Origin: Pseudorhodoferax soli
GTDB lineage: Bacteria; Pseudomonadota; Gammaproteobacteria; Burkholderiales; Burkholderiaceae_C
Direction: 5' to 3'
DNA length: 64,000 nucleotides
Assembly (NCBI RefSeq): GCF_003337555.1
Contig: NZ_QPJK01000005.1
Coordinates: forward strand, 248,001 to 312,000
Under the pieces are notes generated by a model that searched no databases, was not told the DNA's origin, and worked only from the letters and a program-made list of their open reading frames with translations. Positions 39,200 to 54,542 of the stretch are shown one piece after another. Made by a program: the position numbers and the translations under genes. Numbering within the stretch: position 1 is the first letter of the stretch; each line of letters starts with the position of its first letter.

Positions 39200-39503
39200 G
39201 GCGGTGGTGGGAATCGGATGGCTTCCGCACCAGTCTGCATGGCTTGTCGCCGCCTGGCATCTTCCGTCGGAGGGAGTCGCCGGCGTGGACCGGGTTCTTT
39301 CGGCCGCGGCGGGAGAGGGGGCAGCGGGTCAAGGTGGAGATGGCGTGCATGGGGCAGTCGACGCTAAGGCATGCACTGGCGCCGGTCTTGAACGGACGTG
39401 CTGTTTCTGGAACGTTGTTGCCGCGCCGCCAGCGGCGGGGCCGAAAGCCGCAATCCATCGGTGCGGCTCTGGCGCTGCGTGGGCAGTGGTTGCGCCATCC
39501 GGC
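39200..39503. other. Spacer upstream of the DoxX gene
   Basis: 304 bases. It should contain the DoxX promoter on the minus strand, but I find no convincing hexamers, inverted repeats or riboswitch-like structure. No gene is supported. Confidence 0.4.
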
Positions 39504-40427
39504 TCATCCCGGGCGATTCCACGCGACCGCGCCACTCAACCAACAGCCGATGACCGCCCCGGCGGCGTCGAAGCGCGCGCGCACGGCAATGGCGGAGGGC
39601 CGGCCCATCGCTTCACCTTGCCGTACGGTGCAGGTGACCGGCGCAGCGGCCGTGCCGACCGCGATGCTGCCCTGCGCGGCAAGATGGCCCCACAGGGCCG
39701 CTGCGGCGATGCCGGTCGCGGCGTCTTCCGGGTAGCCAGACGCCTTGGGAAACTGGCGCGCGGCCACGGTGGGCTCGCCCGCCGCGCCCGGCGCGTCCAG
39801 CGCATAGGGATACAGGCCCGTGGAGTCGATCGAGGCGCACAGCGCTTCCATCGCTGCGAAGTCGGGCCGCAGTGCCTGGAGCGACGCCACATCGTGCATC
39901 GGCACCAGGGTCTTGACGCGGCTGGTGCGCGCATTGGTCATCGCTGGGATGCCGGTGCCGGGCAGCCGCAGCACGGCGCCCACGCGCAGTGCCTCCTCTC
40001 CCTTCAGCGTCGCCACCTGCACGGCCGGCTGCGACACCCATACCCGCTGGCTCGCCTCGTCCCATTCGGCCTCGACCAGGCCGCTCAGGGTTTCGACGCA
40101 GGCCGTGGGCGATGTCCACCAGCCCCATTGCCGCAGGGCCCACAGTGTGCCGACCGTCGCATGGCCGCACATTTCCATCTCGTGCTGCGGCACGAAGAAG
40201 CGGAAGCGCCAGTCGGCACGCCTGGCCACGGGCTTGAGCACGAACGCCGACTCGTGGCCGGTGGCGTGCGCCATCCGCAGCATGTCCTGCGAGGACAGCG
40301 CCGACGCATCGGCAACGAGCGGCACCGGGTTGCCGCCGCCATGGCCGCCGATGAACACATCGACCTGCCGCAGTTCACCCGCCGATGGCGGCGCTGCGGG
40401 CGACGTGGATGCCTGGCGCTCAATCAA
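39504..40427 (-). CDS. PhzF-family isomerase-like protein
   Basis: 307 residues. PhzF-type proteins have two diaminopimelate-epimerase-like halves. The catalytic Glu59 lies in ATGHESAFV and the conserved EMEMCGHATVGTLWAL follows. The second half has SGYPEDAATGIAAAALWGHL. Only a few members make phenazines, and no phenazine genes are present here. The start is uncertain: a TTG at 40427, overlapping the Bug gene end, gives an N-terminal extension of about 20 residues before LRQVDVF, the usual start region. It is cotranscribed with the upstream Bug receptor gene. Confidence 0.85.
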   Translation of the reverse strand: MIERQASTSPAAPPSAGELRQVDVFIGGHGGGNPVPLVADASALSSQDMLRMAHATGHESAFVLKPVARRADWRFRFFVPQHEMEMCGHATVGTLWALRQWGWWTSPTACVETLSGLVEAEWDEASQRVWVSQPAVQVATLKGEEALRVGAVLRLPGTGIPAMTNARTSRVKTLVPMHDVASLQALRPDFAAMEALCASIDSTGLYPYALDAPGAAGEPTVAARQFPKASGYPEDAATGIAAAALWGHLAAQGSIAVGTAAAPVTCTVRQGEAMGRPSAIAVRARFDAAGAVIGCWLSGAVAWNRPG

Positions 40428-41436
40428 TCTTCGCTCCCACGGCCTTGGCGATGCGGCCCCAGTAGGGGATGTCCGCGGCGACGGCGGCCTGCAGTTCGGC
40501 CGGGGTGCCAGGGCGGGCGTTGATGCCCTTGGCGGCCAGATCGGCCGAGACCGCGCGGTCGGCCAGCACCTTGTTCAGCGCCTGGTTGAAACGCTGCACC
40601 ACCGGCATGGGCGTGCCCTTGGGGAATGCCACGCCATACCAGAGCGACTGCGTGAAGTTGGCGATGCCCTGCTGCGCGAAGGTCGGCACGCCGGCCAGCA
40701 GTGCGTTGGGCGCGGTCGTCGCCACGGCGACCAGCTTTCCGCTGCGGATGGCCGGCACCAGCCCGGCCGGGTTGTCGAACATCAGCTGCACCTGGCCGCC
40801 CATGAGGTCGGTGTAGGCCGGGGCCGCGCCGCGGTAGGGCACGTGCACCAGGGGCACGCCCGCATGGGCCTTGAACTGCTCGCCCAGCAGATGCGACACG
40901 GTGCCTGCGCCCACCGAGGCGAAGCTGTAGCGCTCCGGGTCGCGCTTCAGCGCGGCGACCAGCCCCTTGACATCGGTCACGCCCAGCGACGGCTGGACCG
41001 CCAGCACATAGGGCGACGTGGCGACGAAGCCGGCGTAGACGAAATCGCGCGCAGGATCGTAGGGGAGCTTCGGGTAGACGCTCACGCTGACCGCGTGGGT
41101 GCTCGTGGTGGCCAACAGGGCGGTGTAGCCGTCGGGGGCCGCCTTGGTGACGTAGGCCGAGCCGATGGTGCCGCCGGCCCCGGCGCGGTTGTCGATGACG
41201 ACGGGCTGCCCCAGCTCCTGCTGCAGTTGCGGCTGGATGCTGCGCATGGCCACATCCGTGCCGCCGCCCGCAGGGAAGGGCACCACGATGGTGACGGGCC
41301 GACTCGGCCAGCTTTGCGCCACGGCAGCCAGGGGGGCAGCGCAGGCGCCAAGCAAGACTGCTGCTGCGGTGGTGGCCAGCGAACGCCGGCGCGCGTGAGG
41401 TGGGGGTGTTGGTGGCACGGAGGATCCACAGGGCAT
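40420..41436 (-). CDS. Bug/TctC-family periplasmic solute receptor
   Basis: 338 residues. A signal peptide (RRRSLATTAAAVLLGACAAP..., cleavage near AVAQ) is followed by the Bug fold: WPSRPVTIVVPFPAGGGTDVAMR, VVIDNRAGAGGTIGSAYV and VPYRGAAPAYTDLMGGQVQLMF. These receptors bind small carboxylates or amides. No TctA/TctB membrane genes are adjacent, which is common for Bug proteins. ATG 41436 lies only about a dozen bases from the putative -10 element, so it is either a leaderless start or the true start is the GTG at 41418, which would still leave a normal signal peptide. First gene of a two-gene operon with the PhzF-like gene. Confidence 0.92.
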   Translation of the reverse strand: MPCGSSVPPTPPPHARRRSLATTAAAVLLGACAAPLAAVAQSWPSRPVTIVVPFPAGGGTDVAMRSIQPQLQQELGQPVVIDNRAGAGGTIGSAYVTKAAPDGYTALLATTSTHAVSVSVYPKLPYDPARDFVYAGFVATSPYVLAVQPSLGVTDVKGLVAALKRDPERYSFASVGAGTVSHLLGEQFKAHAGVPLVHVPYRGAAPAYTDLMGGQVQLMFDNPAGLVPAIRSGKLVAVATTAPNALLAGVPTFAQQGIANFTQSLWYGVAFPKGTPMPVVQRFNQALNKVLADRAVSADLAAKGINARPGTPAELQAAVAADIPYWGRIAKAVGAKID

Positions 41437-41445
41437 GACGATCGC

Positions 41446-41515
41446 CCCATGCTAGGAACAGCGGCGCACATGTGCGAACCCAAACACGACAGCACGGCAA
41501 CCCATTCGCGACACG
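41446..41515 (-). promoter_or_regulatory. AraC-type promoter/operator of the Bug-PhzF operon
   Basis: Written on the plus strand: CCCATGCTAGGA (41446-41457), then two direct half-sites AACCC-N4-ACGACA (41477-41491) and AACCC-N4-GCGACACG (41499-41515), exactly 22 bases apart. On the coding strand the first element reads TCCTAGCATGGG and contains a -10-like TAGCAT, with the proximal half-site near position -45. Two direct half-sites about two helical turns apart is the normal AraC-family layout. The same elements with identical spacing occur at 50666-50735. Confidence 0.75.
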
Positions 41516-41541
41516 CGACACGCGACACGCGACACGCGCCA
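41507..41541. repeat. Tandem heptamer CGCGACA, four perfect copies
   Basis: Four head-to-tail copies (41507-41534) and a fifth with one change (CGCGCCA, 41535-41541). The first copy forms part of the distal operator half-site, so the array multiplies the half-site core GCGACA. A non-coding heptamer array could vary in copy number by slippage. It is not CRISPR: there are no spacers. Confidence 0.8.
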
Positions 41542-41587
41542 CACGGCGGATGGCGCGCGGCACGCCGCACGCCGCGCCGCGGCAATG

Positions 41588-42361
41588 TCAGCCGGGCACG
41601 CCGCGCAGCAGCCGGTTCAGGTGCCCGCTGTGGGTGAAGCCGAGATGCGGGCTGATGCTGGAGGGCGCCATGCCCTGGGCGATCAGCTCACGGGCCTTGG
41701 CGGCCAGCAGGAGCCGGCGGATCGCGACCGGGCTGCTGCCCAGCTCGACGGCGCAGGCGCGCTGCAGACGGCGCACCGACACGCCGAGTTCGCCTGCCAC
41801 CATTTCCACCGTGGGCATGGCGGTCTCCAGGTCCAGGGCGCGGGCATAGCACTTGAGCATGCGCTGGGCCACCGACTCGGCCTGGTCGGCGCGCGCCGGA
41901 TGCAGCCACTGGCACGGCTGGCGCGCGGCCAGTTGCGCCACGAGCGCCTGCACCAGCGGCTCGGCGCCGGCCGGTGCCAGCGTCGGCGCGGCCAGCGCAT
42001 CCAGCATCGCGACGGTTGCCGCATCCAGCCTGAACACGCCGAAGCGGCTGCCCTTGCCGAGCAGTTCTGGGCGCAGGTACAGCTCGCCGTGGCGTTGTCG
42101 GGACGCCGCCGATCGCGTGCTGTGCGCGGCCGACACCGGCAGCAGCAAGGCCGAGTGGCGCACGAGCTGGAGCGCCTGCGGGTCGGTGCCGGGCTCTGTC
42201 ATCCAGCGGCTGTCGAGCGCGCCGACCTGTGGCCAGAGCAGCATCGCGCAGTCGTGCATGTGCCAGTCGAAGTGGTAGTTGGGCTGGCTGCTCTGCCGCA
42301 GGAAGTAGCCCTGCTCAGCGGTGTCGGCCAGCTTCGACGACAGTGGGATGGAGATGGCCAT
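41588..42361 (-). CDS. AraC-family transcriptional regulator (1)
   Basis: 257 residues. The N-terminal half is a cupin-like sensor domain with PNYHFDWHMHDCAMLLWP. The C-terminal ~100 residues carry the paired helix-turn-helix of AraC (TVEMVAGELGVSVRRLQRAC and the second helix region ending SGHLNRLLRGVPG); the end is shorter than usual. It shares the WHxHDCxML segment with the AraC gene at 50.9 kb and is probably its paralogue. ATG 42361 is preferred over the ATG at 42373 because GAGGAA lies seven bases before it. It may be translated ahead of the Bug operon but has its own upstream spacer. Confidence 0.87.
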   Translation of the reverse strand: MAISIPLSSKLADTAEQGYFLRQSSQPNYHFDWHMHDCAMLLWPQVGALDSRWMTEPGTDPQALQLVRHSALLLPVSAAHSTRSAASRQRHGELYLRPELLGKGSRFGVFRLDAATVAMLDALAAPTLAPAGAEPLVQALVAQLAARQPCQWLHPARADQAESVAQRMLKCYARALDLETAMPTVEMVAGELGVSVRRLQRACAVELGSSPVAIRRLLLAAKARELIAQGMAPSSISPHLGFTHSGHLNRLLRGVPG

Positions 42362-42461
42362 GGCGTTCCTCATGGAGGCTGGGCAAGCGATTTCCGGGCC
42401 ATCCCGTTCGTCGTCCGTGCTGCCGGAGGACTCCGAACACAGCGGCCGTGCCGCTTGCAGC

Positions 42462-42508
42462 CACGGTGAAGCTTACACCGTGCGCCTGCAGAGGCCTCGC
42501 AGGCGCAC
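42462..42508 (-). terminator. Two adjacent inverted repeats after the aldolase gene
   Basis: GTGCGCCTGC (42480-42489) pairs perfectly with GCAGGCGCAC (42499-42508). Next to it CACGGTG (42462-42468) pairs with CACCGTG (42476-42482). They lie about 65 bases past the stop codon of the last gene of the RidA/ABC operon and before AraC gene 1. No T-tract; either a terminator or part of the AraC promoter. Confidence 0.5.
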
Positions 42509-42574
42509 ACGGATCGCGCGTTCGGGCCCGCCGCAAATCCCGGCCCACCCCGAAAGGGTGCGCAGGGCGGTCCT

Positions 42575-43341
42575 TCAGTCGCTGTAAGCCTGTCCCAGCC
42601 TGTCGAGCATGCGCATCAGTGCAGGCCAGTCGTGCAGCTCGCTCCCGTCGGGCTCGCAGAACTGCCGGGCGACCTTGGCGGCCACCGCCTCGCTGCATTC
42701 CCGTACCGCGGCGCCGCCCGCCAGTGCCGCGATCTGGGCCTGGCAGGCGCGCTCCAGGTAGAACATCAGGTCGAAGGCCGCGCGCACGGTCTCGCCCGCC
42801 GTCAGCAGGCCGTGGTTGCGCAGCACCATCGCCTTGTTCAACGGCCCCAGGTCGCGCACCAGGCGCGGCTGTTCGTCGGCGTCCAGCGCAACGCCCTCGT
42901 AGTCGTGGTAAGAAAGCGCGCCATGGAAGCGCATCGCGTGCTGCGACAGCATGCGCAGGCCTTGCTCCTGGGCCGCCACGCCGATGCCGGCTGCCGTGTG
43001 CGTGTGGATCACGCAGTGCAGGTCGGCGCGGGCGCGATGGATGCAGCTGTGGATCACGAACCCTGCTGGGTTGCACCCCAGGCCGGTGGGGTCCAGCAGG
43101 GCCCGGCCTTCATGGTCGACCTTCACCAGGTTGGAGGCGCTGATCTCGTCGAACATCAGGCCGTAGGGATTGATCAGGAATTCGCCCGCCGTGCCGGGCA
43201 CCCGTGCCGAGACGTGGGTGTAGATCAGGTCGGTCATGCGGTAGTGCGCGAGCAGGCGGTAGCAGCCTGCCAGGTGGACGCGCTGCGTCCATTCCGCGTC
43301 GCTGACGCTTTCCCGCACCTGCGGGTAGATGTGGCGCTGGC

Positions 43342-43345
<4 letters not shown>
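42575..43345 (-). CDS. Class II aldolase/adducin-family protein
   Basis: 256 residues. Family members (fuculose-phosphate aldolase, ribulose-phosphate epimerase AraD, adducin head) bind zinc. Here HTHTAAG and the later LRNHGLLTAGETV supply three of the His ligands, with SCIHRARADLHCVIHTHT in the core. Enzymes of this group cleave or epimerise sugar or hydroxy-acid substrates; some are decarboxylases. ATG 43345 overlaps the stop of the ABC ATPase gene. It is the last gene of the RidA-amidase-transporter operon and may process the released product. Substrate unknown. Confidence 0.88.
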
Positions 43346-45009
<1,664 letters not shown>

Positions 45010-45013
45010 GGCA

Positions 45014-45904
45014 TCAGACCTTGTTCTTGCGCGAGAAGCGCGGATCGAGCCGGTCGCGCAGCGCGTCGCCGAACATGTTGACGGCGAGGATCAGCAGCGC
45101 GAGGAAGATGCCAGGGCACAGCACGATCCACGGGGCGCGCTGGAAGAACGGGCGGCCCTCGGAGATGATGGTTCCCAGGCTCGGAATCTCGGGCGGGAAG
45201 CCCAGGCCCAGGAAGCCGAGCACGGCTTCGGTCAGGATGGCGGCCGCGCAGACGAAGGTGGCCTGCACCACCAGCGGGTTGATGGTGCTGGGCATGATGT
45301 GGCGCCACAGCACCTTCAGCGTCGGCGTGCCGGAGCCGACGGACGCCTCCACGTAGGGCGCTTCGCGCACCGACAGCACCACCCCGCGCACCAGCCGCGC
45401 GATGCGCGGGACCTCCGGGATTGCGATGGCGATCACCATCGTGGCGATGTTGGCCCCGCCGAGCGAGACCATGGCCACGGCCAGCAGCAGGCCGGGAATG
45501 GCCATCACGCCATCCATCACGCGCATGACCGGCGCGTCCAGCTTGCGAAAGTAGCCCGCGGCCAGGCCGATGGCCAGGCCCACGATCACCGAGATCAGGC
45601 TGACCAGCGCCGCCAGCGTGATCGACAGGCGCCCGCCGTAGAGCACGCGGGACAGCAGGTCGCGCCCGAGCGAGTCCGTTCCCAGCCAGTAGACCGGGGA
45701 GGAGGGCTGCAGCCGAGCGCGCGGCGTGAGTGCCGCCGGGTCGTGCTGGGCCAGCAGCGGCGCGCCGACCGAGATGGCGACCAGTACCAGCAGCAGCACC
45801 AGGGAGCCCAGCATGACGGGGTCCTGGAGCACGGCGCTGGCGCCTTGCCGAAGCCGCGAGGGCGGCGCGGCGAGCGGGAGGGAGGGGGCGATGGACGATG
45901 GCAT
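45014..45904 (-). CDS. ABC transporter permease, DppC/GsiD-like
   Basis: 296 residues with six transmembrane helices. LGTDSLGRDLLSRVLYGGRLSI is the typical DppC-type loop, and the EAA ATPase-contact motif is seen at VREAPYVEASVGSGTPTLKVLWRHIMP. Inner-membrane partner of the DppB-type protein. GGAG precedes the ATG at 45904. It is in the order receptor, permease, permease, ATPase, standard for peptide/nickel-type importers. Confidence 0.95.
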   Translation of the reverse strand: MPSSIAPSLPLAAPPSRLRQGASAVLQDPVMLGSLVLLLVLVAISVGAPLLAQHDPAALTPRARLQPSSPVYWLGTDSLGRDLLSRVLYGGRLSITLAALVSLISVIVGLAIGLAAGYFRKLDAPVMRVMDGVMAIPGLLLAVAMVSLGGANIATMVIAIAIPEVPRIARLVRGVVLSVREAPYVEASVGSGTPTLKVLWRHIMPSTINPLVVQATFVCAAAILTEAVLGFLGLGFPPEIPSLGTIISEGRPFFQRAPWIVLCPGIFLALLILAVNMFGDALRDRLDPRFSRKNKV

Positions 45905-45929
45905 GGAAGGGCTCCGGGGCGGGCGCGGC

Positions 45930-46871
45930 TCAGTAACGGATCCGTGGATCGAGCAGCACGTAGCTCATGTCGATCAGCAGGTTGACCAGGACATAGATGA
46001 ACGAGAAGAACAGGATCGTTCCCTGCACGACGGGGTAATCGCGCGCCAGTACCGCGTCGACGATCAGGCGACCGACGCCGGCGATGTTGAAGATGGTCTC
46101 GGTCACCACCACGCCGCTGATCAGCGCGGTGAGCGCCACCCCGACGATGGTGACGATCGGGATCGCCGCATTGCGCAGTGCGTGGCGGAACAGCACGTAG
46201 CGCTCGGTCACGCCCTTGGCGCGTGCGGTGCGCACGAAGTCCTCGCCCAGCACGTCGAGCAGGCTGGCGCGTGTGATGCGCGTGATCAGGGCCACGAACA
46301 CCATGGACAGCGTCAGCGTGGGCAGCAGCATGTGCGCAGCGTGCGCGGCCAGCCCGTCGGCCAGCGGCGCGTAGCCCTGCACCGGCAGCCAGTTCAGCTT
46401 GACCGAGAACACCAGGATGAGCACATAGCCCACCACGAACACCGGCACCGAGAAGCCCAGCACCGCCACGGCCATGATGCCGCGGTCGGCCAGGCTGCGG
46501 TGGCGCCAGGCGGCCAGCACGCCGAGCGGAATGGCCAGCGCGATGGTCAGGCCGATGGCCCAGGCGGCCAGTGCGAACGTGGGTCCCAGCCGCGTCTTGA
46601 TCAGCTCGGTGACCGGCAGCTTCGACTGGATGGAGTGGCCGAGGTCGCCCTGGGCGAGCGCACCCATCCAGCGCAGGTACTGCGTGGCGATGGACTGGTC
46701 GAGCCCCATCTCCGCGCGGATCGCGGCGATGGTCTCCTCGCTCGCCATGTCACCGGCCATGACACGGGCGGGGTCGCCCGGCGCCAGCCGCAACAGCAGG
46801 AACACGACGGTGGCCACGATCAGCATCACCGGGATGGCGGCGAGCAGGCGTTTGAGTACAAGTTCGAGCAT
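45930..46871 (-). CDS. ABC transporter permease, DppB/GsiC-like
   Basis: 313 residues with six transmembrane helices and the DppB-type start (LVLKRLLAAIPVMLIVATVVFLLLRLAPGDPA). The EAA-like motif VRTARAKGVTERYVLFRHALRN is present. GAGGAAACGC precedes the ATG at 46871. It pairs with the permease 25 bases downstream to form the channel of the importer. Together they would carry a short peptide, amide or similar cationic compound. Confidence 0.95.
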   Translation of the reverse strand: MLELVLKRLLAAIPVMLIVATVVFLLLRLAPGDPARVMAGDMASEETIAAIRAEMGLDQSIATQYLRWMGALAQGDLGHSIQSKLPVTELIKTRLGPTFALAAWAIGLTIALAIPLGVLAAWRHRSLADRGIMAVAVLGFSVPVFVVGYVLILVFSVKLNWLPVQGYAPLADGLAAHAAHMLLPTLTLSMVFVALITRITRASLLDVLGEDFVRTARAKGVTERYVLFRHALRNAAIPIVTIVGVALTALISGVVVTETIFNIAGVGRLIVDAVLARDYPVVQGTILFFSFIYVLVNLLIDMSYVLLDPRIRY

Positions 46872-46911
46872 GCGTTTCCTCGCCCTGGTGGGTTGACCGC
46901 GACCGGTGCCG

Positions 46912-48504
46912 TTACTTCTTGCCGGACCAGAACAACGGAACCAGCGCCTCGGTCATGCCTTCCAGCTTGGCCGGGTTGTAGGCCTTGAACTTGGAGTAGC
47001 TGCCGAGCGGAACGAACAGCACCTGCTCGTAGTTGAGCTTCTGGATCGCGATGGCGATCTGCTTCTTCTTGGCCACGTCGCTCTCTTCGGCGAACTGGCC
47101 GCGCAGCTTCTCCGTCTCCTCGCTCTTGGCCCAGCCCACGTAACCGGTCTCGCCGCGCCCGTCCAGGTTCGGGTTGGTCAGCGGGCTCATCAGGTCGAGG
47201 CTGGCGAAGCCGGTCTGGAAGATGCTCCAGCCGCCTTGCGCGACGGGGTCCTTCTTGGAGTAGCGCGACAGCAGCGTGGCCCAGTCCATCGACTGGATCT
47301 CCACGTTCATGCCGATCTCCTTCAGGGCCTGCGCCGTGACCGACGCCAGGGCCCCCAGGGTCGCCAGGTCCGTCGGGTGCAGGATCACGACCTTGGCGCC
47401 GTCGTAGCCGCTCTCCTTGAGCAGTGCCTTGGCGCGTGCCATGTCGGGCTTCTTCGTCTGCGTGGCGCCTTCCTCGGACGCGTACGGCGATGCACACGAC
47501 AACACGGCCCCGCACAACTGGTAGAGCTTGGCGTCGCCGATCTGCGCGTCGAGGTAGTCGGTCTGGTTGAGCGCCGCCAGCGCGGCGCGGCGCACCTTCA
47601 CGTTGTTGAATGGCGGCTGCAGCCAGTTCATCTTCATCGTGAACATGTTGGTGCTCTTGCCGTAGGGCTTGAGGGCGACGTTCTTGGCACCTTCGAGCTG
47701 CGGCATGAGATCGGGCGGCACGTCCTCGACGAAGTCGACCTCGCCATTGCGCAACGCGTTGATCGCCGTCTGCGAATCGGGGATGTTGACCAGTTCGATG
47801 CGGTCGGCGATGGCCAGCTTGCCGCCCGCAAACGCACTGGACGGCTCGGCGCGCGGCAGGTAGTCGGCGAACTTCACATACGAGGCCTTCACGCCGGGCT
47901 GGAAGTTGGCGGCGACGAAGCGGTAAGGCCCCGAGCCCACCACCTCGGTGATGGCCTGCGAGACCGGCGTCGCCGCGATGCGCTTGGGCATGATGAACGG
48001 CGCCGGCAGGTTGGGCTTGGCCAGGGCCTCGAACAGCAGTCCGAACGGCTGCTTGAGCTGGATCACCACGGTGGCGGCATCCGGGCTTTCGATCTTCGCG
48101 GTGGCGGCCATCATGCGCTGGCCCACGGCATCGCGATCGGACCAGCGCTTGAGCGAGGCCACCACGTCCTCGCCGGTCACGGGCGTGCCATCGTGGAATT
48201 TCAGGCCCTTGCGCAAGGTCAGCGTGACGCTGAGTTTGTCCGGCGACTCCTTCCAGCTCTCCACCATCGCGGGCTGCGGCTTGCCGGCGGCGTCGAGTGC
48301 GAACAAGGTCTCGTACACCAGATAGGCATGGTTGCGCGTGATGTAGGCGTTGGTGAAGACCGGGTCCAGCACACGCAAGGGCGCCTGGAACACGATCTTG
48401 ACCGTCGACTGCGCATGTGCGGTGGCGCACGGCACCATCGCACTGGCGACGACAGCGGCGGCAGCAAGCAGCGTGGGGGCCAGCTTGGTCGTCAGGTTTC
48501 TCAT
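46912..48504 (-). CDS. Peptide-type ABC transporter substrate-binding protein (SBP family 5)
   Basis: 530 residues. Signal peptide ends near AHAQ (residue ~32). The family 5 body includes LRVLDPVFTNAYITRNHAYLVYETLF, LKFHDGTPVTGEDVVASLKRW and VVGSGPYRFVA. Family members bind peptides, nickel, opines, glutathione or polyamine-like compounds. AAGGA lies seven bases before the ATG at 48504. It lies between the amidase gene and the permeases, so the ligand is probably an amide that the amidase later hydrolyses. Confidence 0.95.
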   Translation of the reverse strand: MRNLTTKLAPTLLAAAAVVASAMVPCATAHAQSTVKIVFQAPLRVLDPVFTNAYITRNHAYLVYETLFALDAAGKPQPAMVESWKESPDKLSVTLTLRKGLKFHDGTPVTGEDVVASLKRWSDRDAVGQRMMAATAKIESPDAATVVIQLKQPFGLLFEALAKPNLPAPFIMPKRIAATPVSQAITEVVGSGPYRFVAANFQPGVKASYVKFADYLPRAEPSSAFAGGKLAIADRIELVNIPDSQTAINALRNGEVDFVEDVPPDLMPQLEGAKNVALKPYGKSTNMFTMKMNWLQPPFNNVKVRRAALAALNQTDYLDAQIGDAKLYQLCGAVLSCASPYASEEGATQTKKPDMARAKALLKESGYDGAKVVILHPTDLATLGALASVTAQALKEIGMNVEIQSMDWATLLSRYSKKDPVAQGGWSIFQTGFASLDLMSPLTNPNLDGRGETGYVGWAKSEETEKLRGQFAEESDVAKKKQIAIAIQKLNYEQVLFVPLGSYSKFKAYNPAKLEGMTEALVPLFWSGKK

Positions 48505-48558
48505 ACCGGTTCCTTCATTTGAAAAGTGGAGACAAGGCAGCGCGGGCATCGCGCCCGT

Positions 48559-50004
48559 TCACGCGAACAGGGGCTTCCTGCCAGACCAGGGCGCCAGACG
48601 CTCGAGCTGGGCGGACAGCGTGAGCAGCACGTCCTCACGGCCGAAATGCCCGATCAACTGGGTTGCCACGGGCAGGCCTTGGGCGGTCGCCGAGAGCGGC
48701 AGGCTGACGGCCGGCAGGCCGGCGCCGTTGACCACCGGCAGGAAGGTGGAGTAGCTGGCGGCACGCGTGCGGTAGGCGCGAAAGCCAAGCCCGTCCGGCG
48801 AGTGCAGCGCCAGGTGGCCGAGCTTGGCCGGCAGCTGCGACAGCGTGGGCGTGAGCAGCACATCCAGGTCGGCCATGGCGGCCGCGAAGGCGCGGCCCAC
48901 GGCATGCAGGCAGGTCACTGCTTCCACATACGCCGCGGCGGACAAGCCGCGGCCGACGTGGTAGCCGTCGAGCAGCACCGACTCGAGGTCGTCGTCCCGC
49001 AGCGGCCGGGCCAGCGCCTTGAGGCGTGCGTCGACCGCCACCACGACGTTGGCGGCCAGGATGCTGCCGTGCGCATGGACGAAGGCGTCGTAGTCGATGT
49101 CCGGCAGCGTGGCCTCGAACACCTCGTGGCCCACGGAACGCAGCAGCGCAGCCGTGTGGTCCACCGCGGCATGGCATTCCGGCGCGATGCCGATGCCGTT
49201 CCAACCCTGGCGCAAGATGCCGACGCGCAGCGGACGCACATCGGACGCGCGCACCGCATCCAGGTACGAGCCCGCCTGCGGGGGCGCGGCGTACGGCGCG
49301 CCCGGCGCATAGCCCGCGATCGCGTCGAGCGCTGCCGCCGTGTCGCGCACGCTCATGCTGAGCACGCCGTCCGTGGCCATGCCGGCCCAGCCTTCGCCGC
49401 GCTTCGGGCCGGCCGTGACGCGTCCGCGCGAAGCCTTCAGGCCGAACACGCCGCAGCACGCGGCCGGGATGCGGATCGAACCACCGCCATCGCTGCCATG
49501 CGCCACGGGCACGATGCGCGCAGCCACCGCCGATGCCGCGCCGCCGCTGGAGCCGCCGGCCGAGCGTGCGCGGTCCCAGGGGTTCGGCGTGGCACCGCCG
49601 TTGCGCAGCGCCTCGGTGGTGCCGGCCATGCACAGCTCCGGCACGGTGGTGCGCGCGAAGGGGATCAGTCCGGCCGCTTCGAAGCGGTCTGCCACCGTGG
49701 CGTTGTAGTCGTAGGCCGTGTCGTTGAGCAGCCGCGCCCCGACGCTGGACGGGAAGCGCCGATGGGCAAGGCCGGAATCCTTCAGCAGGAACGGGATGCC
49801 GCCGAACGGGCCGCGCAGCGCCCAGTCGGCCGCGATGCCGCGCGATTCCTCGTAGCGCGGATAGGTGATGGCGTTGAGCGCCGGATTGCGCGCCTGTGCC
49901 AGCGCGATCGCGCAGTCCATGAGCTCGGCGGGCGTGACCTCGCGGCGATGGAGCAGGTCGGCCAGCGCGAGGCCGTCGAGCTTCTCGTACTCGTGGGTGT
50001 TCAT
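48559..50004 (-). CDS. Amidase (amidase-signature family) of the ABC-transporter operon
   Basis: 481 residues, full-length amidase-signature enzyme. Lys75 (PFLLKDSG), cis-Ser loop GGSSGGAAS (150-158) and nucleophile Ser176 (SDGGGSIRIP) are intact. It has no signal peptide, so it acts on imported substrate. ATG 50004 overlaps the RidA stop (ATGA). Together with the transporter, RidA and aldolase genes it suggests uptake and hydrolysis of one amide compound. It is clearly distinct from the amidase at 7065-8543 (different spacing and insert segments), so the two are not a recent duplication. Confidence 0.93.
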   Translation of the reverse strand: MNTHEYEKLDGLALADLLHRREVTPAELMDCAIALAQARNPALNAITYPRYEESRGIAADWALRGPFGGIPFLLKDSGLAHRRFPSSVGARLLNDTAYDYNATVADRFEAAGLIPFARTTVPELCMAGTTEALRNGGATPNPWDRARSAGGSSGGAASAVAARIVPVAHGSDGGGSIRIPAACCGVFGLKASRGRVTAGPKRGEGWAGMATDGVLSMSVRDTAAALDAIAGYAPGAPYAAPPQAGSYLDAVRASDVRPLRVGILRQGWNGIGIAPECHAAVDHTAALLRSVGHEVFEATLPDIDYDAFVHAHGSILAANVVVAVDARLKALARPLRDDDLESVLLDGYHVGRGLSAAAYVEAVTCLHAVGRAFAAAMADLDVLLTPTLSQLPAKLGHLALHSPDGLGFRAYRTRAASYSTFLPVVNGAGLPAVSLPLSATAQGLPVATQLIGHFGREDVLLTLSAQLERLAPWSGRKPLFA

Positions 50005-50516
50005 GCGTGCACCTTGGGGTCATGGCCGGCCAGTTGAGGCAACACGGCGTCCAGTTCGATTTCGATGAAGGCGCGGTCTGGCAGGCTTGCCACACCGACT
50101 GCGGTTCGCGCGGGCCTCGGTGCTTCGGGCCAGGCGGCACACAGCACGTCAGAGGCCGCATCGAGTACGGCGCTGTGGGCCGTGAAGTCGGCACTGCTCC
50201 GCACGAAGCCGCGCAGGCGGCACACGTCGAGATGAGAGGGCAACGCACCACCGCATGCGGCGGCCACAGCGGCCAGCACATTCAGCATCGCGACTTGCGC
50301 TGCGGCCCGGGCGGGTTCCAGCGCCTGCCCTGGCTCGCAGCTGCCCTCCATGGCCACGCCGTCGATGCGGCAGGTCTGGCCGCTGATGGCGAGCTGGCTG
50401 CTGCCATCCGCCACAGGTCGCAGATAGAAGGGCGCGTAGTGGCCCCGCGGCTGCGGTGTGGCGGGCAAGCGGTGGCCAGCGGCCTCCAGGCGCTGTTCGG
50501 GTGTCGCCGCGTTCAT
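50001..50516 (-). CDS. RidA/YjgF/UK114-family protein
   Basis: 171 residues, slightly long for the family (usually 125-155) because of ~25 N-terminal residues. The RidA fold is seen in YLRPVADGSSQLAISGQTCRIDG and RLRGFVRSSADFTAHSAVLDAASDVL, with RTAVGVASLPDRAFIEIELDAVL at the C-terminus. RidA proteins hydrolyse reactive enamine/imine intermediates from amino acid metabolism; the subgroups differ and this one lies in a catabolic operon. The ATG at 50516 overlaps the stop of a 47-codon leader frame, so translation may be coupled. First conventional gene of the operon. Confidence 0.9.
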   Translation of the reverse strand: MNAATPEQRLEAAGHRLPATPQPRGHYAPFYLRPVADGSSQLAISGQTCRIDGVAMEGSCEPGQALEPARAAAQVAMLNVLAAVAAACGGALPSHLDVCRLRGFVRSSADFTAHSAVLDAASDVLCAAWPEAPRPARTAVGVASLPDRAFIEIELDAVLPQLAGHDPKVHA

Positions 50517-50656
50517 GGCGCGAGCATCCTGCGGCAGGCGTTGCGGGGACCGCCCGCGGCGCTCCTCGTGCAGGACAGGGCGGGCGATTGGCAGGCCGGC
50601 GCGTGATGGCCTGGAGACCAGAGGAGTGGGAGCGACGGCATGGGTTCCATGAACAT
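50513..50656 (-). CDS. Possible 47-codon leader ORF ahead of the RidA gene
   Basis: ATG 50656 opens a frame (MFMEPMPSL... to ...RRMLAP) that ends with TGA overlapping the RidA ATG (ATGA). Its ATG stands exactly nine bases after the TCCTAGCATGGG element, the same distance as the Bug ATG in the sister promoter. The peptide itself (Pro/Cys-rich) resembles no family. It could be a leaderless coupling ORF or chance. Confidence 0.35.
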   Translation of the reverse strand: MFMEPMPSLPLLWSPGHHAPACQSPALSCTRSAAGGPRNACRRMLAP

Positions 50657-50665
50657 GAATCTGCG

Positions 50666-50735
50666 CCCATGCTAGGAGCGCGTCGCGCGCCAGACCAACC
50701 GAAACGCGACACCGCGCGAACCCTTCTGCGACACG
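50666..50735 (-). promoter_or_regulatory. AraC-type promoter/operator of the RidA-amidase-ABC operon
   Basis: Plus-strand order: CCCATGCTAGGA (50666-50677), half-site AACCG-N4-GCGACA (50697-50711), half-site AACCC-N4-GCGACACG (50719-50735). All three parts keep the same spacing as at 41446-41515, and the half-sites are again 22 bases apart. On the coding (minus) strand TAGCAT is the -10-like hexamer. The divergent AraC gene starts 148 bases away and is the likely regulator. Confidence 0.75.
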
Positions 50736-50882
50736 GTGCGCCGCTGCCATGCGCCTGCCTTGAAAGCATGGCCGCGGTGCTGCAGACTGCCGCATGCGGA
50801 CGGCCACGCCGTCCCATAATTGCGCGCCACGCGTGCACCTTGCAGCGCATCGCATCCCACAAGCCCAAGCACCTGCCCGACC
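50736..50882 (+). promoter_or_regulatory. Putative promoter region of AraC gene 2
   Basis: CATAAT (50815-50820) is a good -10 in otherwise GC-rich DNA; no -35 is seen at 16-18 bases, so it may need activation. It would give a leader of about 55 bases. The rest of the 366-base RidA/AraC spacer (50517-50882) holds the operator and leader ORF described separately. Confidence 0.45.
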
Positions 50883-51770
50883 ATGCTGCGATCGTTTGAA
50901 CAGCTCTGCCAGGAGACGGTTGAAGGTTGGCAGATCGCCGCCGACGATGGCCATGCCGCGCAGGCCAACAGCGGTGCGTACGCCCAGCCCTGGCACTGGC
51001 ACGACTGCGTGATGTTGATCCTGCCGAGCTGTGGCGCGGTGGAGCTGCAGCACGAGGATCGCCGCCAAGGGACCTGGCTGACGCACGACCGCTTTGCCGT
51101 CGTGCCGGCGAACCGGGCGCACATGACGCGGGCCGGAGCAGGGGCCCACCATGTCGCGCTCTACGCGACGGAATCGATGCTGAGCCGGCTCGACAGCGAG
51201 CTCGGCTCCCTGCGCGAGTTTCACCGCCGCACGCGCGCCGCCGTTCTGGTGCAGCGCACGCCGCGCGTCCGCGCGCTCCAGGCACTTGCCACCGGCGCCG
51301 AACACGGCGGCTATGGCCACGCCGGGATCACGCGCTCCCTGGCGGTCGCACTGCTCATCCAATGCATCGCGGAGGTCATGGCGGGGCCGGTGTTGTCGGC
51401 CGTCTCCCGGGCTGAGCACGGCATGGCGCTCGTCGCCGAGCTCAAGAACTACATCGCACGGCACGCCGACGAAGACATCCCGCTCGACGCGCTGGGCGAG
51501 CGCTTCGGCGCATCGCGGCGCCACATCACGCGCCTGTTCCGCAGGGCGACCGGTCTCTCCGTGGGCGAGTTCCAGCAGCGTGTACGGCTGCAGACGGCAC
51601 GCGAGCTGCTGGGTGGCACCGATCTGCCGATCGGCGAGGTCGCGTTCCGGGTCGGTTTCGACAGCGGCACTGCGCTGAGCCATGCCATGCGCCGCGTCGA
51701 TGGCTGCTCGCCGTCCGAGGTGCGCAAGGCGTCACCGCGGCGCACCGTCAGTGCGGGGCGTCCGGGCTGA
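50883..51770 (+). CDS. AraC-family transcriptional regulator (2)
   Basis: 295 residues. The N-terminal cupin-like domain carries PWHWHDCVMLILPSCGAVEL. The C-terminal DNA-binding part has both helix-turn-helix units (IPLDALGERFGASRRHITRLFRRATGLS and LPIGEVAFRVGFDSGTALSHAMRR). It is divergent from the RidA operon and next to its operator, so it is the best candidate activator of both operons with the shared promoter. Its 3' end overlaps davA tail to tail by 23 bases. It is probably paralogous to the AraC at 41.6 kb. Confidence 0.92.
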   Translation: MLRSFEQLCQETVEGWQIAADDGHAAQANSGAYAQPWHWHDCVMLILPSCGAVELQHEDRRQGTWLTHDRFAVVPANRAHMTRAGAGAHHVALYATESMLSRLDSELGSLREFHRRTRAAVLVQRTPRVRALQALATGAEHGGYGHAGITRSLAVALLIQCIAEVMAGPVLSAVSRAEHGMALVAELKNYIARHADEDIPLDALGERFGASRRHITRLFRRATGLSVGEFQQRVRLQTARELLGGTDLPIGEVAFRVGFDSGTALSHAMRRVDGCSPSEVRKASPRRTVSAGRPG

Positions 51771-52557
51771 GCCGCTGCGCGCGGACCTGGCTGAGATGCC
51801 CGAGGCGCTCCCGGGCAGCGGCCAACATGCTGCGCTGCAACCGCGCGAACAGCAGGGACGGCTGGCGATCGGCTTGCGCAAGCACGGCGCCATCGGGCGC
51901 GGCCACACAGCTCAGCCCGTTGTAGGCGATGCCAGCCTCCTGCCCGCAGAAGTTCGCATAGGCGACGAAGAGCTGGTTCTCGTACGCGCGGGTCGGCACC
52001 AGGTGCTGCGCCACGAAGTCGTAGCCTTCCATGTTCGCCGTCGGAACGACGACCAGGTCGGCGTGCTGCAGCGCGAGGCGGCGCGCATTCTCTGGAAACT
52101 CCACGTCGTAGCAGACCAGCATGCCGACCATCCAGCCATGCAGCGCGAACGGCAGCGTGTCTCCCCCGCCTGCGGTGAACATGCTGCGGTCGAGTTCGCC
52201 GAACAGCTGCGTCTTCTGGTGGCGACCCACGACGCGGCCGTCGCGGTCGACGCAGACGGCCATGTTGCCGATCCCGCCACGTTCGTCGCGCTCGGGGTGG
52301 CCGAACACGATCGCGATGCCGTGCCGCCTTGCCAAGGCACCCACTGCCGCTGTGCGGCCGCCGCCAGGCGCTTCGGCGAGAGCGGCGGCGGCTGCGCCAC
52401 CAATGTTGTAGCCCGTCAGGAACATCTCCGGCGTGACGAGCAAGTGCGTTCCTGCGGCCGCCGCGTGCTGGCATGCGCGGTCCAGCCGTTGGAGGTTCCG
52501 CGCGACATCGCCCGGCGCAGATGTGCACTGCAGCAAGGCCAGGCGCAGCTCGTTCAT
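51748..52557 (-). CDS. davA: 5-aminopentanamidase-like carbon-nitrogen hydrolase
   Basis: 269 residues, a nitrilase-superfamily amidase. The catalytic triad is Glu44 (VTPEMFLTGYNIG), Lys115 (RHQKTQLFGELDRSMF) and Cys149 (LVCYDVEFPENARRLAL). The segments match DavA of Pseudomonas putida, which hydrolyses 5-aminovaleramide to 5-aminovalerate and ammonia in lysine breakdown. The ATG at 52557 overlaps the stop of the davB-like gene, whose product would make the substrate. This pairing makes the assignment strong. The later steps (davT, davD) are not in the window. Confidence 0.87.
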   Translation of the reverse strand: MNELRLALLQCTSAPGDVARNLQRLDRACQHAAAAGTHLLVTPEMFLTGYNIGGAAAAALAEAPGGGRTAAVGALARRHGIAIVFGHPERDERGGIGNMAVCVDRDGRVVGRHQKTQLFGELDRSMFTAGGGDTLPFALHGWMVGMLVCYDVEFPENARRLALQHADLVVVPTANMEGYDFVAQHLVPTRAYENQLFVAYANFCGQEAGIAYNGLSCVAAPDGAVLAQADRQPSLLFARLQRSMLAAARERLGHLSQVRAQRLSPDAPH

Positions 52558-54242
52558 TCCGGCAGCACCATCGGCCCGATGGCGCCGAACACGTCGCCGG
52601 GGCCAGGGTTGGCGCTGTGGGTGCGCCCGCCGAAGTGCCGCAGGATGCCCCACACCGCGTTGAGCGAGGTCTGCACCGCGCCTTCCACCCATGCCGGCGT
52701 CCAGGACACGTCGTCGCCTGCGATGAAGATGCCACGCTCCGCGGCCGGCATGTCGTCCTGCACGAAGTGCGCGAACATGCGCTGGTTGTAGCGGTAGTGG
52801 CCGGGCAGCGCGCCCTTGAACGCGCCAAGGAAATGCGGATCGGACTCCCACGAGACCGTGATCGGGTCGCCGACGATGTGGCTGGCGATATCGACGTTCG
52901 GATAGATCTTCTTCAAGGCGCCGAGCGCGAGCTTGACGCGCTTCTCGGGCGACTGCGGCAGCATCTTCAGCGCATCGCCCATCCACGCATAGGACAGGCA
53001 GATGACGCCGGGCTTGTCCGGGCCGTTGTCGAAAAGGTAGGTGCCGCGCGTGAGCCGGTCGGTGAGCGTCATGCTCATCACATCGCGGCCGGTCGCAGGA
53101 TCCTTGTCCTTCCAGAAGGGTCGGTCGACCATGACGAAGGTCTTGCTCGACTGCATGTAGCGCGTGCGGTCCAGCGCCATCCACATCTTGTGCGAGAACA
53201 GGGATTCGTCGCAATCGATCTGCGTGGTCAGCAGCCAGCTCTGGCAGGTGGCCAGCACCGCGGCATACGACTGCTGTCCGCCCCAGCGGTCGATCACTGC
53301 CAGGCGGCCGTCCTGCTGCCGGCGAATGGCGGCCACGCCGGCCCGAGGGGCGCCGCCGTGCAGGCTGGCCAGGCTGGTGCCCGCCGGCCAGTGGACGCAT
53401 TGGCTGGGCGCGTGGCGCCACAGGCCGAGCGGTACCTGCTCCACGCCGCCGACGATCAGCCGCTGCGCGTCGTCGCAGTTGGTCATCACCACGCGCAGGA
53501 TCTCCAGCATCGAGTTGGGGAAATCGGAGTCCCAGCCGCCGGTGCCGAATCCAACCTGGCCGAACACTTCGCGGTGCTGGAACGACAGCTTGGCGAATGC
53601 CTTGGAGGTGGCCACGAAGTCGTAGAAGGTGCGGTCGTCCCACAAGGGGACCAGCCGATTCCACAGCGTCTTCAGCGTCGACACGTCGCGCTGGCGGATC
53701 GCTTCCTGGACCGCGCTGAACTGCGCACCATCCTCGAGTGCCTCTCGCCATGCATCGGCCACCTGCCTGAACATCGGCGGCAGGTCCGACAGCTTCTCTG
53801 CATAGTGCGTCAAGCCCTCGAGATCCACCACAGTGCTGCCGGATGCCGGCGTGAGGGGATTGGGGAACGGCCGCGTCTCCAGACCCAGCGCGTCGACGTA
53901 CTTGTAGAAGGTCGTGCCGGAGACCGGGAAGCGCATTCCCCCAAGCTCGGCAACAACGCCCTGGCCGCCTTCGAAGGCCTGCGAGCGCAGGCGGCCGCCC
54001 AGCTTCGACGCCTCGTAGACCACCGGCTTGAGCCCGAGCTTCATCAGCTCATAGGCCGCCACCATGCCCGCCATGCCGGCGCCCACGATGGCGACCTCGG
54101 CACCATGCCGTTGCGGCGGCAGCTCCCCCAGTCCTGCAGGGTGGCTGATCCACGCATCGAACGCGAAGGGAAAGTCGGGTCCGAAGACGGTGACAGGAGG
54201 GCGACCGGCATGCGTTGCCGTGGCCGTGGCGGAAAGGGACAT
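52554..54242 (-). CDS. davB: L-lysine 2-monooxygenase-like FAD enzyme
   Basis: 562 residues. It resembles P. putida DavB very closely by eye: VTVFGPDFPFAFDAWISHPAGLG, FAD loop EVAIVGAGMAGMVAAYELMK (50-68), GGRLRSQAFEGG, VFGQVGFGTGGWDSDFPNSM and AGDDVSWTPAWVEGAVQTSL. The enzyme oxidatively decarboxylates L-lysine to 5-aminovaleramide. Related tryptophan and phenylalanine 2-monooxygenases share the fold, but the neighbouring davA gene favours lysine. The ATG at 54242 is chosen; the open frame further upstream (to 54323) lacks the family's N-terminal pattern. Confidence 0.9.
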   Translation of the reverse strand: MSLSATATATHAGRPPVTVFGPDFPFAFDAWISHPAGLGELPPQRHGAEVAIVGAGMAGMVAAYELMKLGLKPVVYEASKLGGRLRSQAFEGGQGVVAELGGMRFPVSGTTFYKYVDALGLETRPFPNPLTPASGSTVVDLEGLTHYAEKLSDLPPMFRQVADAWREALEDGAQFSAVQEAIRQRDVSTLKTLWNRLVPLWDDRTFYDFVATSKAFAKLSFQHREVFGQVGFGTGGWDSDFPNSMLEILRVVMTNCDDAQRLIVGGVEQVPLGLWRHAPSQCVHWPAGTSLASLHGGAPRAGVAAIRRQQDGRLAVIDRWGGQQSYAAVLATCQSWLLTTQIDCDESLFSHKMWMALDRTRYMQSSKTFVMVDRPFWKDKDPATGRDVMSMTLTDRLTRGTYLFDNGPDKPGVICLSYAWMGDALKMLPQSPEKRVKLALGALKKIYPNVDIASHIVGDPITVSWESDPHFLGAFKGALPGHYRYNQRMFAHFVQDDMPAAERGIFIAGDDVSWTPAWVEGAVQTSLNAVWGILRHFGGRTHSANPGPGDVFGAIGPMVLPE

Positions 54243-54542
54243 GGTCGAGGAGTCTTCCAAAGGGACGGCGTTTCGGTCGCTCAGGAAGGTACGTCTTGCC
54301 CGTTCGACCGGTCCAAGCCACAAGCCAAGGCGGTTGGAGCGCGTGCGGCGCCTCGAAAGGCGACGAGCTTGCGCAGGGGATGGACGGGGCTCAGTCTATG
54401 GACCGGACTGACCGGAGATGGGCTCGAACGGGCCCAAGGTTTTGATTGCCCGGGCCAGGCGTGCCGTTGCATGACTGCATGGGCCTGAAGATGCCGTGCA
54501 CGACACCGCTGCCCTGAGAGGCACCCGTCTGCTTCGACCGGA
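54243..54542. promoter_or_regulatory. Spacer upstream of davB with an inverted repeat
   Basis: 300 bases. TCAGTC (54391-54396) and GACTGA (54406-54411) form a perfect dyad with a nine-base centre, about 150 bases before the davB ATG. It could be an operator for a lysine-responsive regulator. The AraC-type operator seen at 41.4 and 50.7 kb is absent. No gene is supported. Confidence 0.4.

What the first reader, a model, noticed from the sequence alone, without database searches (positions are those of the whole stretch)
41446..50735. Two operons 9 kb apart share the same three-part AraC-type promoter with identical spacing
Directly seen: CCCATGCTAGGA, then AACC(C/G)-N4-(A/G)CGACA, then AACCC-N4-GCGACACG occur at 41446-41515 and at 50666-50735. 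In both copies the first half-site starts 31 bases and the second 53 bases after the start of the first element, so the half-sites are 22 bases apart. The rest of the spacer has diverged, so this is conserved function and not a recent duplication. AraC-family proteins bind two direct half-sites about two helical turns apart. The -10-like TAGCAT lies on the strand of both operons. Inferred: one AraC protein (probably the gene at 50883) activates the Bug-PhzF operon and the RidA-amidase-ABC-aldolase operon as a small regulon for one unknown amide-type substrate.
Basis: partly seen in the sequence, partly recalled or inferred. Interest (0 to 1): 0.75.

Follow-up and report, generated by a model that had tools for sequence, protein, structure and literature searches.

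The report
Two-operon AraC switch with shared promoter
Two neighbouring bacterial gene groups carry the same unusual control switch, and comparison with related bacteria points to the small AraC-type regulator gene lying between them as its owner: an ordinary kind of gene switch, whose likely regulator and targets can now be named.

Summary
It looks like an AraC/XylS-type class II promoter, but the likely activator is AraC 1 (41588-42373), not AraC 2 (50883). AraC 1 orthologues were found in 2 of 398 other family genomes and 30 of 60 Cupriavidus genomes. All 33 bug promoters examined outside this genome (with C. campinensis) carry the element, half-sites 21-24 bp apart, 22 bp to the -10, wherever araC1 lies. 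Seven AraC 2-type loci have no such pair near araC2. One Cupriavidus genome (G816) has a second site, upstream of the orthologue of this window's amidase-ABC operon (75-87% identity), supporting a true two-operon regulon; but that match has 3 mismatches, a level at which reversed controls also hit, and six other orthologous operons lack the site. ridA, third gene of the bug operon elsewhere, here heads the amidase operon. Mechanism is by analogy to XylS/MtlR; binding, inducer and substrate are untested. New member of a known kind.

The parts
41499..41513 (-). distal half-site of promoter 1 (TGTCGC-GAAT-GGGTT, operon direction)
41477..41491 (-). proximal half-site of promoter 1 (TGTCGT-GTTT-GGGTT), 22 bp from the distal one, 22 bp before TAGCAT
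41449..41454 (-). -10-like TAGCAT of promoter 1; ATG of bug follows after 12 nt
50719..50733 (-). distal half-site of promoter 2 (TGTCGC-AGAA-GGGTT)
50697..50711 (-). proximal half-site of promoter 2 (TGTCGC-GTTT-CGGTT)
50669..50674 (-). -10-like TAGCAT of promoter 2
41588..42373 (-). araC1, the proposed activator (261 aa; HTH_18, 40.5 bits, cut-off 33.6), same strand, between the two operons
40420..41436 (-). bug (TctC solute-binding protein), first gene of operon 1
39504..40427 (-). phzF (PhzC-PhzF isomerase family)
50001..50516 (-). ridA, first recognisable gene of operon 2; third gene of the bug operon in the relatives examined
48559..50004 (-). amidase (Pfam Amidase)
46912..48549 (-). SBP_bac_5 peptide-type solute-binding protein
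45930..46871 (-). ABC permease (BPD_transp_1, with N-terminal domain; called permB here)
45014..45904 (-). ABC permease (OppC/DppC-like; called permC here)
43342..45009 (-). ABC double ATPase
42575..43507 (-). class II aldolase family gene (ORF limits; similarity to Variovorax begins near residue 52-55, so the true start is probably near 43345)

Best explanation
Both sites are AraC/XylS-type class II activator promoters served by AraC 1 (41588-42373). Two AraC 1 monomers bind head-to-tail on consecutive 15-bp half-sites (operon direction TGTCGC-N4-SGGWT, 22 bp apart), so that the proximal half-site abuts a poor -35 region and helps RNA polymerase to start from TAGCAT. This switches on bug-phzF and ridA-amidase-ABC transporter-aldolase together, presumably when AraC 1 senses a pathway compound. 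Shown by sequence: the element, its rarity, its co-occurrence with araC1, its conservation with fixed geometry at bug promoters, and a second site on the orthologous amidase operon of G816. Inferred: binding, activation, effector, operon structure, and the pathway (uptake and breakdown of one compound). araC1 lies 201 bp after the aldolase gene on the same strand, so it may also be read from promoter 2 (positive feedback; not tested).
For: Unique pair in 8.16 Mb. AraC 1 orthologues in 3 of 399 family genomes including this one; the composite half-site + N20 + CCTAG pattern in 5 of 399, which include all 3 (Fisher 9.5e-7). AraC 1 in 30 of 60 Cupriavidus genomes. Element directly upstream of bug in 31 of 31 Cupriavidus loci (26 at 22 bp; 5 at 21 bp), in G175 (22 bp) and in Diaphorobacter HDW4B (24 bp), wherever araC1 lies. 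The proximal half-site is 22 nt from a TAG..T -10 in 35 of 35 aligned promoters, both window sites included. G816: among 32 AraC 1 genomes scanned, the only second match that also has the -10, and it lies upstream of the orthologous amidase-SBP-permease-permease-ATPase operon. HTH regions alike among AraC 1 homologues and different in AraC 2.
Against: No binding or expression data. Of 8 orthologous amidase operons (62% identity or more) only 2, this one and G816, carry the site; G821, G820, G812, G815, G175 and G318 have none in the 15-18 kb fetched, and 5 of these 6 genomes do have AraC 1. The G816 second site has 3 mismatches to the pattern, and at that level the reversed control hit 3 of 32 genomes, so its -10 and position carry the weight, and both were judged after the fact. 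Site 2 is nearer to araC2 (about 150 bp) than to araC1. The pattern was designed from sequences that it finds; its two other hits equal the two reversed-control hits. The absence of a consensus sigma-70 promoter says little, since shuffles gave a mean of 0.4. The Cupriavidus loci are relatives, not independent.
Confidence: 0.83

Rival explanations
1. AraC 2 (50883) activates both operons, or AraC 2 controls site 2 while AraC 1 controls site 1, through similar sites.
For: AraC 2 is divergent from and next to site 2. In 5 of 7 AraC 2-type loci phzF follows araC2 directly (L007-L010, L064), with ridA in L064, so the two regulators serve similar gene sets. L007 has one lone half-site about 230 bp upstream of araC2.
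Against: No pair near araC2 in 7 of 7 loci; best pair anywhere in them 22.3, in L009, 9.5 kb from araC2. G816 has the site before its amidase operon with no araC2 in the fetched 18.5 kb (the rest of G816 was not searched for araC2). HTH regions differ. In Variovorax L005, araC2 has the same convergent nitrilase-type and amine oxidase neighbours as here.
Confidence: 0.09
2. The sites belong to a third, unlinked regulator, and AraC 1 only travels with the cassette.
For: Linkage is not proof of binding; the HTH score of AraC 1 is modest. Cupriavidus genomes without AraC 1 were not scanned for the element.
Against: The element tracks AraC 1 over two families and three placements of the gene, and two 15-bp direct repeats are the published layout of AraC/XylS dimer sites.
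Confidence: 0.06
3. Site 2 is a relic of a duplicated bug-phzF-ridA promoter carried along with ridA and no longer regulated.
For: ridA is the third gene of the bug operon in the 33 other cassettes examined and here heads operon 2 behind the site.
Against: The spacers have diverged while half-sites and -10 are intact; G816 has the site on the amidase operon without ridA.
Confidence: 0.06
4. Chance similarity or a dispersed repeat.
For: A 7-bp tandem repeat adjoins site 1.
Against: No third copy in the genome and reversed controls 0.
Confidence: 0.01

Closest known systems
XylS/Pm (AraC/XylS family, Pseudomonas putida TOL plasmid)
   Same: Two consecutive 15-bp direct half-sites, TGCA-N6-GGNTA-N6-TGCA-N6-GGNTA (PMC4514859, passages; PMC5481539, passages). 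Here TGTC-N6-SGGWT: same half-site length and a similar 3' box.
   Different: Period 22 bp here (21 for XylS from its published N6 gap; 21 also in 5 Cupriavidus loci), other 5' box, other genes; orthology to XylS not tested.
MtlR/PmtlE of Pseudomonas fluorescens
   Same: AGTGC-N5-AGTAT-N7-AGTGC-N5-AGGAT: two 15-bp blocks with N7 between, at -72/-58 and -50/-36 (PMC4514859, passages): the same 22-bp period and, if the start is about 7 nt after TAGCAT, nearly the same position.
   Different: Different sequence, mannitol genes; orthology not tested.
AraC 2-type phzF loci (Mesorhizobium, Bradyrhizobium, Acetobacter, Paraburkholderia)
   Same: AraC-family gene directly before phzF (L007-L010, L064), with ridA in L064.
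   Different: Distant regulator, no such half-site pair near araC2.

Membership tests
AraC/XylS family regulator (AraC 1) | C-terminal AraC-type HTH domain above the Pfam cut-off | tested here: met
   HTH_18 40.5 bits, cut-off 33.6; HTH_AraC was not reported for AraC 1, nor any NCBIfam family
AraC/XylS family regulator (AraC 1) | Effector-binding N-terminal domain | tested here: inconclusive
   No Pfam hit in the N-terminal half; a WH.HDC motif is shared with AraC 2 and looks cupin-like, a reading from memory
XylS-type class II activator promoter | Two direct 15-bp half-sites about two helical turns apart | tested here: met
   22 bp at both window sites; 21-24 bp in relatives
XylS-type class II activator promoter | Proximal half-site next to or overlapping the -35 region, fixed distance to -10 | tested here: met
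   22 nt to TAGCAT (4), TAGACT (30) or TAGAGT (1) in 35 of 35 promoters; start sites themselves not mapped
XylS-type class II activator promoter | Weak own promoter that needs the activator | tested here: inconclusive
   0 consensus sigma-70 matches in 39300-51000, shuffles mean 0.4; activity not measured
XylS-type class II activator promoter | Regulator binds the half-sites and activates with an inducer | not testable with these tools
   needs footprint and expression assay
Regulon of AraC 2 | Site accompanies AraC 2 orthologues | tested here: not met
   0 of 7 AraC 2-type loci have the pair near araC2; L007 has a lone half-site
Orthologue of XylS or MtlR | Orthology of the regulator | not tested
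   no tree or comparison with these proteins was made

The most novel reading that the evidence does not exclude
The same amidase-ABC operon was recruited into the AraC 1 regulon twice, independently, in a Comamonadaceae species and in a Cupriavidus species: each time its promoter carries the -10 type of the local bug promoters (TAGCAT here, TAGACT in G816), while six other copies of the operon lack the site. In the window, ridA has moved from one co-regulated operon to the other.
Probability: 0.3. Interest if true: 0.55.

Novelty: new member of a known kind. Interest (0 to 1): 0.45.

Why it matters
It gives an AraC-type regulator a predicted binding site, two predicted target operons and some thirty natural promoter variants, so the function of a recurrent bug-phzF-ridA cassette can be sought by looking for its inducer. 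It also suggests a small regulon gaining an operon and shuffling a gene between its operons. In the held library no paper contains PhzF, RidA, AraC and operon together, nor PhzF, RidA family and amidase together; subscription journals are mostly not held.

Tried and rejected
AraC 2 as activator: judged unlikely. Chance: judged very unlikely. (pair with up to 2 mismatches, 399 genomes) hit 14 genomes; besides this genome only G175 was followed up. The 12 others were not examined one by one and are taken as chance, since by my count of the table the reversed control also hit 10 genomes; HDW4B was missed there because of its 24-bp spacing. In one search the two hits without AraC 1 (G046, G248) have no cassette gene in the 1.8 and 3.0 kb held, and the reversed control also gave two hits (G197, G301): taken as chance. 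In one search (up to 3 mismatches) the reversed control hit G793, G827 and G799 once each; the second G813 hit has no -10 at the right distance and is taken as chance. In L151 (G318) a pair of score 18.7 at 25-bp spacing lies 8 kb from the amidase and is taken as chance. G788 (amidase 44%) was left out of the count of 8. Structure prediction was not used. No tree of RidA, amidase or AraC was built, so the order of events for ridA is undecided. In the large protein searches only part of the first-look candidates were scored (for instance 6 per genome), so orthologues could have been missed. Paper searches were used as listings; of the papers listed there only PMC4514859, PMC5481539 and PMC5320631 were opened, for passages.
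Full report
Observation. Read in operon direction (- strand) it is TGTCGC-N4-GGGTT, N7, TGTCGY-N4-SGGTT, N20, CCTAGCATGGG. The 12-mer occurs twice in the 8,162,227-base genome, reversed control 0. The pair of half-sites with up to 3 mismatches also occurs only twice, reversed control 0. A matrix trained on bug promoters only (site 1, G175, HDW4B), at 22-bp spacing, gives site 2 a score of 35.2, against 8.9 for the next place in the window other than the two sites. The two spacers share little, so this is not a recent copy.

Surroundings. On the - strand the order is [promoter 2]-ridA-amidase-SBP-permease-permease-ATPase-aldolase-araC1-[promoter 1]-bug-phzF. araC1 ends 74 bp before the distal half-site of promoter 1 and starts 201 bp after the aldolase gene (from coordinates). 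araC2 is divergent from promoter 2. Convergent to araC2 lie a nitrilase-type hydrolase and an amine oxidase, as directly downstream of araC2 in Variovorax L005. A search of the own genome with RidA gave three further matches of 31-39% identity, all on other contigs, so no ridA remnant was found behind phzF.

Which regulator. AraC 1 and AraC 2 are distant: 30% identity over 90 residues. Relatives of AraC 2 from Variovorax (2), Mesorhizobium, Bradyrhizobium, Acetobacter (2) and Paraburkholderia carry no such pair near araC2, 0 of 7; L007 has one lone half-site about 230 bp upstream of araC2. The best pair anywhere in those loci scores 22.3 (L009, 9.5 kb from araC2), which overlaps the low end of the AraC 1-linked bug promoters (20.5 to 45.3); its -10 was not looked for. 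AraC 1 relatives are rare in the family: 3 of 399 genomes including the own one (only 6 candidates per genome were scored), and 2 of 6 in the genus, where all candidates were scored. In G175 and HDW4B araC1 lies beside bug-phzF-ridA; in the window beside bug-phzF. The order sample gave one more genome, G553. Its genus is Cupriavidus, since G831 of that genus matches the Cupriavidus EM10 record in contig length and, within 3 bases, in place; 30 of its 60 genomes have AraC 1.

Phylogenetic footprint. In 31 of 31 Cupriavidus loci (the 30 genomes plus C. campinensis NZ_CP043441, which may repeat a species) araC1 is convergent to bug-phzF-ridA, and the element lies upstream of bug: 26 with 22-bp spacing, 5 with 21 bp (L093, L095, L096, L100, L102). 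G175 has 22 bp and HDW4B 24 bp. araC1 is upstream in tandem (window, G175), divergent (HDW4B) or convergent at the far end (Cupriavidus), so the element follows the promoter of bug, not the edge of araC1. The proximal half-site is 22 nt from the -10 in 35 of 35 aligned promoters, both window sites included; the -10 reads TAGACT in 30, TAGCAT in 4 and TAGAGT in 1. In the 29 promoters with 22-bp spacing, GTCG, GG and TT of the proximal half-site, a G two bases behind it, and T-A-G..T of the -10 are invariant or change in one row. The composite pattern occurs in 5 of 399 family genomes: the 3 AraC 1 genomes, and 2 that lack cassette genes in the short stretch held (Fisher 9.5e-7). The reversed control also hit 2 genomes, so those 2 fit chance. 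The pattern was designed on sequences it finds, so only its near absence elsewhere is independent.

Two operons, one regulon. A scan of 32 AraC 1 genomes with a Cupriavidus-type pattern (up to 3 mismatches) matched 26; the 6 misses are those with 21- or 24-bp spacing. 24 of the 26 have one place only; G813 and G816 have a second, each with 3 mismatches. The reversed control hit 3 of the 32 genomes, so such second hits are expected by chance. The G813 extra has no -10 and is taken as chance. The G816 extra has TAGACT at exactly the right distance; the pair starts 264 bp, and the -10 ends 199 nt, before the start codon of an amidase 77% identical to the window's, followed by SBP (75%), permeases (86%, 87%) and ATPase (84%). 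G816 keeps ridA with bug-phzF (L107), and no araC2 is within its 18.5-kb stretch. That this second site falls on the very operon that carries the second site here is the strongest support for a true two-operon regulon, although it was recognised after the fact. Against it: among 80 genomes the amidase operon (62% or more) occurs in 8, in 7 of 33 with AraC 1 and 1 of 47 without (Fisher 0.007, not corrected for kinship). Only the window and G816, the closest pair, have the site; 6 of 8 do not. The pattern would also miss more divergent second sites.

Mechanism. Published AraC/XylS dimer sites have the same build: XylS TGCA-N6-GGNTA twice, and MtlR two 15-bp blocks with N7 between, at -72/-58 and -50/-36 (PMC4514859, passages; PMC5481539, passages). 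With a start about 7 nt after TAGCAT the half-sites here would lie near -71/-57 and -49/-35 (own calculation). The last TT of the proximal half-site could form the start of a degenerate -35 with an 18-bp spacer (inference). The scan found no consensus sigma-70 promoter in 39300-51000, but shuffles gave only 0.4. In the HTH regions, 34 AraC 1 rows (EM10 twice) nearly all keep R.LQRAC and GHL.RLLR, whereas AraC 2 relatives have SRRH.TRLFR and SG.AL..MRR; that these are the recognition helices is from memory of the family. Binding, activation and inducer are inferred.

Function. Bug and the peptide-type ABC transporter suggest uptake. Amidase, RidA, PhzF and aldolase suggest breakdown of an amide or N-containing acid with a reactive imine or enamine step; RidA-family proteins quench such intermediates (PMC5320631, passages). 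No substrate can be named.

Novelty. This is a new regulon of a known kind. The -10 differs by lineage: TAGCAT in the four Comamonadaceae promoters; TAGACT in 30 of 31 Cupriavidus bug promoters and in the G816 amidase promoter. This leaves open that the amidase operon joined the regulon twice.

Noticed in passing
41507-41542: 7-bp tandem repeat (CGCGACA, 5.1 copies) that starts inside the distal half-site of promoter 1: its TGTCGC box appears expanded into a head-to-tail array upstream.
   Followed up: partly
50513-50656: 47-codon ORF on the - strand whose start follows TAGCAT of promoter 2 after 12 nt and whose stop overlaps the ridA start. The ATG of bug also follows its TAGCAT after 12 nt, so both transcripts may have very short leaders.
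   Followed up: no
42390-42575: By eye, hairpin-like inverted repeats without a T run between the aldolase gene and araC1 (not folded); read-through into araC1 would give positive feedback.
   Followed up: no
L007-L010, L064: AraC 2-type genes sit directly before phzF (and ridA in L064) in Alphaproteobacteria and Paraburkholderia: a parallel regulator-enzyme pairing.
   Followed up: partly
51748-54323: Nitrilase-type hydrolase and amine oxidase genes convergent to araC2; the latter 91% identical to Variovorax L005 over 499 residues.
   Followed up: no
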